This document shows positions 7,415-11,764 of a DNA stretch of 64,000 bases, in pieces. Below the pieces are notes generated by a model, which was not told where the DNA came from, searched no databases, and worked only from the letters and a program-made list of their open reading frames with translations. The translations under genes were made by a program, and so were the position numbers. Positions within the stretch are counted from its first letter, which is position 1; every line of letters begins with the position of its first letter. Where the stretch lies: contig CAMWBY010000001.1 in the NCBI GenBank assembly GCA_947172645.1, positions 1-64,000 on the forward strand, read 5' to 3'. This DNA is from an uncultured Lachnospiraceae bacterium. Lineage in GTDB: Bacteria; Bacillota; Clostridia; Lachnospirales; Lachnospiraceae.

Positions 7415-7990
7415 TTATTCATTGTCAGGCAAAACAGGCTCGACATCTCCGACATCATATTTGCCTTTGAAATCCCCTGCCGTAAAAGTCATAGAAACCG
7501 TGTCAAACTTGCCCATGACCGGGTCGCCAACAGCTTTGAGCGTGCCCGATGCACTGATTTTCTGTCCGCCCTCCCCTGTGAAGTCGCTCACTTCGTTACA
7601 TACAACGAACTGCCTGGCCGTAAACTCAGCCAACTCTTTCGACGGCGTACCAATTGGGTTGAATAACTCAACCTTCACATAGACATGCTTCGCATCATCG
7701 CCGGTGTGGTGGTTCCTCCCGTCCTTCCACAGCGCATAAAGCGCTTTCTGCGACGGTATCGCGTCAAACTGGTATGGGAACTCCGTCTCATACCCTATGA
7801 TGTCAGAGGACGAAGTCGATTCGTTTATGTATGTGGTGGAATCGCTCTGTGCCCCAGGCGATTCATCCAGTTTCGTAAAGCCGATTCCACACAGCTCCAT
7901 TTTCCCGTCCACCTCCAGGTAGTCTGCAATCATCTTACGAATCAATGCGCTCCTGCCCCCAGAAAAAACCTGTAAATCAAAATTCTTCAT
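7415..7990 (-). CDS. Major tail protein with L27-like N-terminal motif (MKNFDLQVFSGG)
   Basis: ORF trimmed from 8104 to ATG at 7990, preceded by AAGGAGG; position and size fit a major tail protein. Confidence 0.75.
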   Translation of the reverse strand: MKNFDLQVFSGGRSALIRKMIADYLEVDGKMELCGIGFTKLDESPGAQSDSTTYINESTSSSDIIGYETEFPYQFDAIPSQKALYALWKDGRNHHTGDDAKHVYVKVELFNPIGTPSKELAEFTARQFVVCNEVSDFTGEGGQKISASGTLKAVGDPVMGKFDTVSMTFTAGDFKGKYDVGDVEPVLPDNE

Positions 7991-8420
7991 GCTTTGGTGC
8001 CTCCTTAAAATATTGTAGCTGTAACTGGATTTGGTAGTGCGCAGTCCCCTCCGTCGCGCCAAACAGGAAGCCCGGAGCCAACACATTGACCGCCTGTGCC
8101 TCACACCCTTCTGGCATTTCTGGCAGGTTCCCCAGAATGCTTTGTTCTTCTACCCAGTTACATAAATCCTCATAAAAACTTTCGTTCTGAATCGCCGTGA
8201 CCCTGTCCATGGAATAAGCCTCGCGGCTGTTAAAATTAAACTGGCGCTGCCTGACAGTTGACCCATCAATGTAGGTCTGTATGATTGAAGAGGTCACGGC
8301 TGATTCAATGGCATATTCAACCGGGGTGCCTCCCAATGCATTTACTCGGAACGCTCCATCTTTTAAAAGCGGGCATTCCAGGAAATAATCGCTCAGTCCT
8401 TCGATAATTGACCCCGACAA
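7977..8420 (-). CDS. Phage minor capsid protein (Minor_capsid_3-like)
   Basis: 147 aa; DYFLECPLLKDG...VEYAIE motif and head-tail gene order. Confidence 0.65.
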   Translation of the reverse strand: MSGSIIEGLSDYFLECPLLKDGAFRVNALGGTPVEYAIESAVTSSIIQTYIDGSTVRQRQFNFNSREAYSMDRVTAIQNESFYEDLCNWVEEQSILGNLPEMPEGCEAQAVNVLAPGFLFGATEGTAHYQIQLQLQYFKEAPKHEEF

Positions 8421-8424
8421 GACG

Positions 8425-8805
8425 TCACCCCTTTTCCGCTGCTCTCAGAAGGTCATTTTTATGTGCTGTTTTCATTCTCTCAAACCACATGCCACCCCTC
8501 TGCGCGTCATATGGCCGTGACTGTGCCGTGCAATAGTACTGCCTCCGCGCATAAGGCACTGTGTATTTCACCTCGCCACTTCCAACTACGGTGCCGAGGG
8601 TGCCTGATTTCTCTAACATACCTGTTATGTGCGGAACCAAAGGTCTACAGTACCTCAGCACCTCACTGTCCACAATAGACTGTTTTCTGTTGAAAGCATT
8701 TGTCATATTCTGTCCGAATCCAGAGTTCCATACCAACTTGCATGATGTTTTCCCTGTCTGTATAATGCTTCCTCTAGGCGTGTCAATCCGATGCCCACCT
8801 TCCAT
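8425..8805 (-). CDS. Phage minor capsid protein (Minor_capsid_2-like)
   Basis: 126 aa; PHITGMLEKSGTLGTVVGSGEVKYTVPYARRQYYCTAQ pattern. Confidence 0.65.
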   Translation of the reverse strand: MEGGHRIDTPRGSIIQTGKTSCKLVWNSGFGQNMTNAFNRKQSIVDSEVLRYCRPLVPHITGMLEKSGTLGTVVGSGEVKYTVPYARRQYYCTAQSRPYDAQRGGMWFERMKTAHKNDLLRAAEKG

Positions 8806-9255
8806 CTACTTGCCCCCAATCCTCCAATGCCTCGTATAAATGCTCCCGCCCGCCGTGTTGTCGGCATACTCCGTAATATGAATCAGGTCTACCCCCTGCT
8901 CCCGTGCATATGCCGCCAGTTCATCCTCATACAGCACAGGCCTTTCGCCTGCATACTCGCAGGGGATAACCATGTCTTTCTTGCGGATTGTCCAGTGCCC
9001 TTTTGCCCCGGCATCATCCTGCTTCGCGTATGCCATGTCTGGCAGGTACTGCCGCCCTTCCTGAACCTCCGCAGATAAGGGTATCCTGATTTTATACTGC
9101 ACATCATCGCTCCATACCCCATTATTGGCTGTCCTGGTTCCTTTTGCTTCCGCATAGGATATCCCATGGATTACCGTCGGTATAAAGGCTTCCCTCCGCG
9201 TTTCCTTGTTTAGCCTGCCATTAAAGACAGTCACAGCATCCACATTCGTGACCAT
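8806..9255 (-). CDS. Phage head-tail connector region protein (hypothetical)
   Basis: 149 aa ORF in head-tail joining cluster. Confidence 0.6.
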   Translation of the reverse strand: MVTNVDAVTVFNGRLNKETRREAFIPTVIHGISYAEAKGTRTANNGVWSDDVQYKIRIPLSAEVQEGRQYLPDMAYAKQDDAGAKGHWTIRKKDMVIPCEYAGERPVLYEDELAAYAREQGVDLIHITEYADNTAGGSIYTRHWRIGGK

Positions 9256-9646
9256 GTGTGCCTCCTGCTTTCCCGCGACGTGAGAGCCATCCAGTAGGCA
9301 GCAGCCACACCCGGATTCCCTGATACATGCAGCGCCTCATATAGCTCTCTTCTGTCTCGCCATCTTTCCTGGGTGTGACAAATGACACTGAAAGCCCATC
9401 TTTGCTTTCGGATTTCAGTGTCCCGCACCGCCTCAGTTCCAGAAAAGCGGCATAGCGGATATCTGCCGCCGCGCAGACAGCCCCCTTTACCGCTTTTTCC
9501 TGTTCCGTATCGGCAAAAATATCGCCATTCAGGTATGTCAGGTAGCGGATGTACGTTTCTGCCTCCCTCTCAAATTCTAGGAAGTCCTGCTCTGGCAGGG
9601 TTTTGCCGCAAAATACATTAACATAATACTCAAAATCAACGTACAT
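9221..9646 (-). CDS. Phage head-tail connector (gp6-like)
   Basis: 141 aa; helical N-terminus typical of gp6-like connectors; directly downstream of capsid gene. Confidence 0.55.
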   Translation of the reverse strand: MYVDFEYYVNVFCGKTLPEQDFLEFEREAETYIRYLTYLNGDIFADTEQEKAVKGAVCAAADIRYAAFLELRRCGTLKSESKDGLSVSFVTPRKDGETEESYMRRCMYQGIRVWLLPTGWLSRRGKAGGTHGHECGCCDCL

Positions 9647-9665
9647 TGCCTGCTGCCTCCCTTCT

Positions 9666-10796: not shown

Positions 10797-10811
10797 ATTT
10801 ATCCCCCTTCT

Positions 10812-11408
10812 TTATCTTCCAAACGCCGAACGGATAGAAGCATTGATTGTGTCACTTGCTGTCTGGCCTGTCCCTGTGCCGCCATCCGGCGTGCCAGTGG
10901 AAACCACCTTAAAGCCCTGCCCCGTAAAACGGGGGTTCCCTTTCAGGTAGGCATCGGCTGCTTTCTTGAAATCAGTCTTGTCATCCACCTGCTTTCCTAC
11001 CTTGAACATCACATAGTCAAGGTCATCGGCTTTTACGCCTTTGTCCCGCAGGTAGTTTAAGTTCTGCATTTCGGCTACCTTAGCGAGCGCCTCGTCCCGC
11101 TGCTTCTCGATTGCCGCCACATCCGTCCGGTTGGCTGCCTTTTTCGCCTTATAATCGGCAAATGCAGTATTGGCCTCGTCCTCGCTCATCCCCCGGCTAC
11201 TGAAATACTCTGCCAAGGCTTCCTTCGTCGCCCTTGCTGCACGTGCCTCCGCAATCTGCTCCGCCTGCTCGTAGCTGTATGATGCATTATGGGCCGCCCC
11301 CTGGGTGTTTGCCTGCATGCCAGCGTTTCCGGATGCCTCCCCCTGGGCTGCTCCCCCTGCCCCGCCGCCATCTGTAAAAAGCTGCAAATTATAATTTTTC
11401 TTTCCCAC
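10812..11408 (-). CDS. Phage capsid scaffold protein (DUF4355-like) with L27-like N-terminal motif (MGKKNYNLQLFTDGG)
   Basis: ORF trimmed to GTG at 11408, 9 nt downstream of AAGGAGG; helical, low-complexity, Q/A/G-rich, just upstream of the capsid gene. Confidence 0.8.
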   Translation of the reverse strand: MGKKNYNLQLFTDGGGAGGAAQGEASGNAGMQANTQGAAHNASYSYEQAEQIAEARAARATKEALAEYFSSRGMSEDEANTAFADYKAKKAANRTDVAAIEKQRDEALAKVAEMQNLNYLRDKGVKADDLDYVMFKVGKQVDDKTDFKKAADAYLKGNPRFTGQGFKVVSTGTPDGGTGTGQTASDTINASIRSAFGR

Positions 11409-11436
11409 TTTTTCCTTCCTCCTTATCCTTGCCTGA

Positions 11437-11470
11437 ATCCTAGACATGAAAAAAGCACCCTGTCTAGGAT
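11437..11470. repeat. Perfect 10-bp inverted repeat ATCCTAGACA / TGTCTAGGAT upstream of the scaffold gene
   Basis: 11437-11446 and 11461-11470 are exact reverse complements. Confidence 0.8.
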
Positions 11471-11473
11471 GCT
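11448..11473 (-). terminator. Intrinsic-terminator-like hairpin after the prp-like gene
   Basis: Minus strand AGCATCC-tagaca-GGGTGCT followed by TTTTT; overlaps and competes with the 11437/11461 inverted repeat. Confidence 0.6.
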
Positions 11474-11479
11474 TGCCTG

Positions 11480-11764
11480 TTACAAAAATTCAATTACCGG
11501 ATACTCCGCAGCGGTGCCGCAGATACCCAAAAACCACGTATCAACCAGTGCCCTGCCTGTGTCATTCATTTTCTGCCACTCTACGCAGATGTTCCCGCTT
11601 TCCACGCTTTCATGCAGTTCTACATGCGCGATATGCTTAAGCCCTTCTATCAGAGTAAGGGTAAGGGCTGACACAGCCGCACATACGATATCTGAGCCAT
11701 GCGGCGCTGTGTTTGCGTGGCCGGACATATGGATTTTATTTGGCGTTACCAGTACAGTAATCAT
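11480..11764 (-). CDS. prp-like: Prp-like ribosomal-processing/phage-processing cysteine protease
   Basis: 94 aa from ATG 11764 (GGAGGG RBS). Contains GHANTAPHGSDIVCAAVSAL with the His-12-residues-Cys spacing of the Prp (DUF464) catalytic dyad. Confidence 0.9.
   Translation of the reverse strand: MITVLVTPNKIHMSGHANTAPHGSDIVCAAVSALTLTLIEGLKHIAHVELHESVESGNICVEWQKMNDTGRALVDTWFLGICGTAAEYPVIEFL

What the first reader, a model, noticed from the sequence alone, without database searches (positions are those of the whole stretch)
7940..11764. Prophage-encoded Prp-like protease with three matching L27-type cleavage motifs in scaffold, major capsid and major tail proteins
Seen: the gene at 11480-11764 encodes a 94-aa protein with GHANTAPHGSDIVCAAVSAL, i.e. 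the Prp (DUF464) His/Cys dyad with 12-residue spacing. It occupies the slot just upstream of scaffold where a prohead protease often sits. Three structural proteins start with L27-extension-like motifs: scaffold MGKKNYNLQLFT|DGG (GTG 11408, AAGGAGG RBS), capsid MNRNRKLFNLQTFA|GGN, and major tail MKNFDLQVFS|GGR. Established: in Firmicutes such as S. aureus, host Prp removes the L27 N-terminal extension (..NLQFFA|) and also processes phage 80alpha-type scaffold and capsid proteins. Inference: this phage carries its own Prp to mature its virion, and the tail-tube protein is an added substrate. It may also cleave host L27, linking ribosome maturation and virion assembly. I cannot tell from here whether phage-borne Prp with a tail substrate has been described.
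Basis: partly seen in the sequence, partly recalled or inferred. Interest (0 to 1): 0.88.

Follow-up and report, generated by a model that had tools for sequence, protein, structure and literature searches.

The report
Phage-borne Prp protease with co-evolved substrates
This prophage carries its own copy of the protease that bacteria use to trim a ribosomal protein, apparently to trim the ends of its own scaffold, shell and tail proteins; across many related phages the enzyme and its cutting sites have changed together, away from the host's version.

Summary
The 94-aa gene at 11480-11764(-) is a Prp cysteine protease (Pfam PF04327, AlphaFold pLDDT 92, best PDB match S. aureus Prp). The host has its own Prp next to L27 (NLQFF|A). 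Of 64 IMG/VR loci picked only by this capsid family, 63 carry Prp just upstream of scaffold; the one lacking it has a host-like NIQFF|A motif. Proteins whose motif ends F|D or F|E always have a Prp upstream (41/41), against 17/57 for F|A (p=3e-14; dereplicated 16/16 vs 15/44, p=2e-6). Within a phage, scaffold, capsid and often tail share the same altered residue (T/T/T, D/D/D, E/E/E), and catalytic-loop residues shift with it. Host L27 keeps F|A (28/28). Best reading: a phage-encoded, substrate-co-evolved Prp is the virion maturation protease. Known before: host Prp processing 80alpha proteins, the motif on phi13 tail protein, the gene family itself. I found no paper on phage-borne Prp acting on its own virion. 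Cleavage itself is untested.

The parts
11480..11764 (-). phage-borne Prp cysteine protease, 94 aa; predicted dyad H16/C28, loop residues G15, G23, D25, S32
10812..11408 (-). head scaffolding protein, 198 aa, GTG start
   Evidence: phrog_2303, E=5e-36
11376..11390 (-). scaffold motif NLQLF; predicted cut before T12 (F11|T12)
   Evidence: cut position after PMC5744158
9666..10796 (-). HK97-fold major capsid protein, 376 aa
   Evidence: PF05065, E=7e-28; PDB 8eci, E=5e-65
10758..10772 (-). capsid motif NLQTF; predicted cut before A14
7415..7990 (-). major tail (tube) protein, 191 aa
   Evidence: PDB 11ok 'Phage tail tube protein', E=2.5e-21; phrog_3099; lies just before the tail chaperone and tape-measure genes
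7964..7978 (-). tail motif DLQVF; predicted cut before S10
11453..11474 (-). terminator-like hairpin between Prp and scaffold, found in 49 of 56 distinct related loci
11783..11807 (-). terminator-like hairpin just before Prp; a hairpin there in 27 of 56 related loci (several weak)
12343..13854 (-). context: minor head protein (Phage_min_cap2), upstream in the same head cluster

Best explanation
The gene is a phage-dedicated Prp that removes the short N-terminal peptides of the phage's scaffold, major capsid and tail tube proteins, cutting between the F and the following residue of an (N/D)LQxF|x motif, with a Cys28/His16 dyad. Shown here: family and predicted fold, intact catalytic residues, position, motif-bearing partners, co-occurrence, and joint shifts of enzyme loop and substrate sites. 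Inferred: that cleavage occurs, that the phage enzyme rather than the host's does it, and that in F|D and F|E phages the host enzyme can no longer do it.
For: Profile, fold and residues. Slot between minor head protein and scaffold. Capsid-anchored survey not selected for Prp: 63/64 loci with at least 1.3 kb upstream carry it; the exception L103 has host-like NIQFF|A in scaffold and capsid. Motif-anchored survey: F|D/E 41/41 with Prp, F|A 17/57, p=3e-14; dereplicated 16/16 vs 15/44, p=2.5e-6 (short-loop Prps first missed were found). Named genomes: 12 Prps with motif-bearing neighbours were all away from L27. Scaffold and capsid P1' classes agree beyond chance: 27.9 of 29 clusters vs 16.9 expected, p at most 5e-4; at 60% clusters 12.8 of 14 vs 7.3, p=0.0035. 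Non-homologous proteins share odd variants: FLQLF|E, FLQLF|E, FLQIF|E (L104); LQHF|T twice (L072); D/D/D (L008, L090, L323); T/T/T (L317). Enzyme side: loop of 12 with Asp at the D31 position in all 11 small-P1' phage loops and 97 of 98 host copies (the other is 13, with Asp); acid-P1' phages have Asn or Ser there with P3 Gln, or keep Asp with a basic P3 (R/H/K) in at least the capsid, or have short loops. Host L27 P1' is Ala in 28/28; published work calls P1' strongly size-limited, occupied by Ala or Ser (PMC9405229).
Against: No cleavage data. Related loci are not independent: at the coarsest clustering (6 groups) concordance is not significant. About 70% of F|A phage proteins sampled have no phage Prp nearby, so host Prp suffices for that motif, and this phage's capsid is F|A. 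In 80alpha, cleavage itself was dispensable while the scaffold N-terminus was essential (PMC5744158). Many Prp-bearing relatives have tail proteins without the motif.
Confidence: 0.85

Rival explanations
1. Host Prp processes the phage proteins, as in 80alpha; the phage copy only adds dose or acts elsewhere (for example on L27 during late infection).
For: Host Prp and NLQFF|A L27 are present in this genome. Most F|A phages have no phage Prp nearby. This phage's capsid site is F|A.
Against: F|D/E motifs occur only with a phage Prp (41/41); joint enzyme and substrate shifts; P1' reported size-limited in host Prp (PMC9405229).
Confidence: 0.1
2. The motif is mainly an assembly or chaperone signal that Prp binds; the enzyme acts as a co-assembly factor and cutting is incidental.
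For: 80alpha scaffold needs the peptide but not its cleavage; the authors suggest a folding or chaperone role (PMC5744158).
Against: Catalytic His and Cys are kept in all the phage Prps aligned, even with loop lengths from 7 to 15; the residue after the cut covaries with the enzyme, as expected of a cut site.
Confidence: 0.15
3. Shared N-termini reflect common descent and gene-block inheritance of Prp and head genes without functional coupling.
For: Loci are related; concordance loses significance at 6 clusters.
Against: Scaffold, capsid and tail are not homologous to each other yet share the same variant; a separate capsid group (L440, L456, L463) with short-loop Prps shows the same link; the capsid-family member without Prp has the host motif (L103).
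Confidence: 0.05

Closest known systems
Host Prp (YsxB; Pfam PF04327, MEROPS C108), S. aureus Prp 7KLD/7JVS/4PEO
   Same: Fold (TM 0.84 to 7KLD), His/Cys dyad with spacing 12, G/G/D/S loop residues
   Different: Phage gene in a head cluster, not beside L21/L27; about 94 aa; partners are virion proteins; in relatives the loop length and D31 position change with substrate P1'
Phage 80alpha scaffold gp46 and capsid gp47 processed by host Prp
   Same: Same N-terminal motif on scaffold and capsid, cut F|A
   Different: 80alpha has no protease of its own; here the phage carries it, sites include F|T and F|S, and the tail tube also bears one
phi13 major tail protein with a Prp motif (PMC5744158)
   Same: Tail protein with the motif
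   Different: Noted there as a resemblance only, in a host-Prp setting
phrog_4478 'peptidase'; Enterococcus phiFL3A gp45; Acutalibacter phage Fontainebleau peptidase
   Same: Same gene in head clusters; scaffold, capsid and tail carry the motif (L009: A/A/A; L008: D/D/D)
   Different: Annotated only as peptidase or ribosomal protein; no substrates assigned in the records
Classical prohead proteases (herpesvirus-type or ClpP-like, as in HK97 and phi12)
   Same: Works like one: sits in the head cluster and would trim capsid and scaffold
   Different: Unrelated fold and cysteine chemistry; would remove about 9-13 residues rather than a delta domain

Membership tests
Prp (PF04327 / MEROPS C108) | profile match above curated cut-off | tested here: met
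   62.6 bits vs 27; relatives' variants 28-74 bits
Prp (PF04327 / MEROPS C108) | His/Cys dyad plus G, D, S loop residues | tested here: met
   G15 H16 G23 D25 C28 S32
[quoted passage not shown]
   strand/helix order (prediction); Foldseek 7kld E=3.5e-7
Prp (PF04327 / MEROPS C108) | cleavage at F|x of an NLQxF motif | not testable with these tools
   needs enzyme assay; motif-bearing partners present
host L27-processing Prp (NCBIfam equivalogs) | full-length equivalog score | tested here: not met
   39 bits at best vs cut-offs of 122 or more
host L27-processing Prp (NCBIfam equivalogs) | gene beside L21/L27 | tested here: not met
   the host copy holds that place
classical prohead protease | match to a known prohead protease family | tested here: not met
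   only Prp matched among Pfam and PHROGs for this gene

The most novel reading that the evidence does not exclude
Phage Prps form a set of naturally orthogonal proteases: specificity has drifted from host-like F|A to F|T, F|D and F|E (and P3 from Q to R/H), by matching changes in the enzyme's catalytic loop (D31 position, loop length) and in two or three unrelated virion proteins at once, freeing these phages from the host enzyme and possibly from satellites that use host Prp.
Probability: 0.55. Interest if true: 0.8.

Novelty: new variant of a known kind. Interest (0 to 1): 0.72.

Why it matters
Prp is an essential enzyme and a drug target in Firmicutes, and in the literature I could read its phage link is a phage borrowing the host enzyme. 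A phage-owned Prp whose cutting sites in scaffold, capsid and tail shift together gives a natural specificity series for a protease described as strictly size-limited at P1', links head and tail maturation to one enzyme, and offers a way to ask the open question of why these proteins are cut at all.

Tried and rejected
Single-protein locus search with the window Prp found only 4 loci, so I anchored on the capsid and on the motif instead. A first coordinate reference for L119 was out of frame. The F|T scan and the loose P3 scan also caught unrelated proteins (MNDLQIF..., MTAVTITVDDLRVF...), so I drew no statistics from them; L404 and L218 (F|T, no Prp found) remain unexplained there. Two F|D/E loci and L447 that first seemed to lack Prp carry short-loop Prps missed by the profile. 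RNA consensus fold of the Prp-scaffold gap gave no structure, probably because of a poor alignment; no Rfam match. Original Prp papers (Wall 2015, 2017; Hotinger 2022 Biochemistry) are not in the library, so a mention of phage-borne Prp there cannot be excluded.

Full report
What is there. The gene at 11480-11764 (minus strand) encodes 94 aa with the Prp signature GHANTAPHGSDIVCAAVS. Pfam gives Peptidase_Prp at 62.6 bits (cut-off 27), PHROGs gives phrog_4478 'peptidase', NCBIfam's L27-processing equivalogs match only weakly (39 bits against cut-offs of 122 or more). AlphaFold with a 17-sequence alignment gives pLDDT 91.6, and Foldseek puts S. aureus Prp with bound substrate analogue first (7kld, TM 0.84). 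Every residue named as important in S. aureus Prp (PMC9405229) is present at constant offset.

Neighbours. Order on the minus strand: terminase, portal (PF05133), minor head protein (PF06152), YjcQ-like, Prp, scaffold (phrog_2303), HK97-type capsid (PF05065), connectors, tail tube (PDB 11ok, E=2.5e-21), chaperones, tape measure.

Host. The genome has its own Prp beside L27, whose N-terminus is MLNMNLQFF|AHKK. Among 61 genomes most have one Prp, and only this one and two others have two; one of the two, L119, is another prophage Prp with three motif-bearing neighbours. L27 P1' is Ala in 28 of 28 loci read.

Survey anchored on the capsid. 80 IMG/VR loci were found with the capsid protein, with no selection for Prp. 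Of 64 with at least 1.3 kb upstream, 63 have Prp upstream of scaffold. The exception, L103, keeps a host-like NIQFF|A in both scaffold and capsid and has no Prp-like ORF in the slot.

Survey anchored on the motif. Two scans looked for RBS, start codon, then (N/D)LQ(L/F)F followed by Asp/Glu or by Ala. With at least 4.5 kb upstream, Asp/Glu cases have a Prp in 41 of 41 and Ala cases in 17 of 57 (p=3e-14; dereplicated 16/16 vs 15/44, p=2.5e-6). The two tested pass the Pfam cut-off, and one is predicted to have the Prp fold.

Joint change. In 79 distinct combinations scaffold and capsid share the P1' class: 27.9 of 29 Prp clusters against 16.9 expected (p at most 5e-4), 12.8 of 14 at 60% clusters (p=0.0035), not significant with 6 clusters. 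Three-protein examples: D/D/D (L008, L090, L116, L323), T/T/T (L044, L317), E/E/E with the odd P5 Phe in all three (L104), A/A/A (L066, L009). The enzyme loop follows: small P1' goes with loop 12 and Asp at the D31 position (11 of 11 loops; hosts 97 of 98, the remaining host copy 13 with Asp). Acid P1' goes with Asn or Ser there and P3 Gln, or with Asp kept and a basic P3 in at least the capsid, or with short loops. P3 Gln is the residue that bonds D31 in the crystal structure (PMC9405229), so a charge adjustment between D31, P3 and P1' is a natural reading; it rests on few independent lineages. L322 fits: its D/D sites have P3 Arg, its tail site F|A has P3 Gln. A second capsid group (L440, L456, L463) shows NLHLF|D/E with another short-loop Prp, GHATGSxExC.

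Named genomes. In 80 loci from GTDB genomes most Prps sit beside L27, and the 12 with motif-bearing virion-type neighbours do not. The Prp tree groups phage copies away from host copies apart from a few (at least two changes forced), with short sequences and open forks.

Known and new. Held literature describes host Prp acting on 80alpha scaffold and capsid and notes the motif on the phi13 tail protein (PMC5744158). Phage copies exist in records as 'peptidase'. Searches for phage-encoded Prp with its own substrates found nothing, but the primary Prp papers are not held. So: a known family, in a new variant, with a testable specificity series.

Limits. No cleavage is shown. Start codons are inferred. 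Contigs overlap between scans. In 80alpha, cutting was dispensable although the scaffold peptide was essential, so the purpose of the cut stays open. Whether this Prp also cuts host L27 is unknown.

Noticed in passing
window 11453-11474(-); L066, L067, L068, L080, L061, L040, L109, L075 just after the Prp stop codon: A terminator-like hairpin follows Prp in 49 of 56 distinct loci, and many loci then share a conserved leader (AUGYCCAAAACGUGAAGRC...AAAAAGCUCGGGA) before the scaffold RBS. No Rfam match; the window's copy of the leader is degenerate. It may set protease against scaffold dose.
   Followed up: partly
window 11783-11807(-): A second terminator-like hairpin just before Prp; a hairpin was found there in 27 of 56 related loci (some weak), often ending GGTGGTATTTTTATA. 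Prp may be its own transcription unit.
   Followed up: partly
window 6244-7313(-): Two overlapping ORFs between tail tube and tape measure, the layout of a tail-chaperone pair made by programmed frameshift.
   Followed up: no
window 11818-12186(-): YjcQ-domain protein (PF09639, phrog_3675) directly upstream of Prp, function unknown.
   Followed up: no
L119 6506 onward (+): In prophage L119 an ORF of up to 516 aa upstream of Prp also starts with the motif (MKLNLQFF|ASKS), a possible fourth substrate class beside capsid and tail.
   Followed up: no
L404, L218: F|T motif proteins with no Prp found upstream; may be chance matches or host-Prp users.
   Followed up: no
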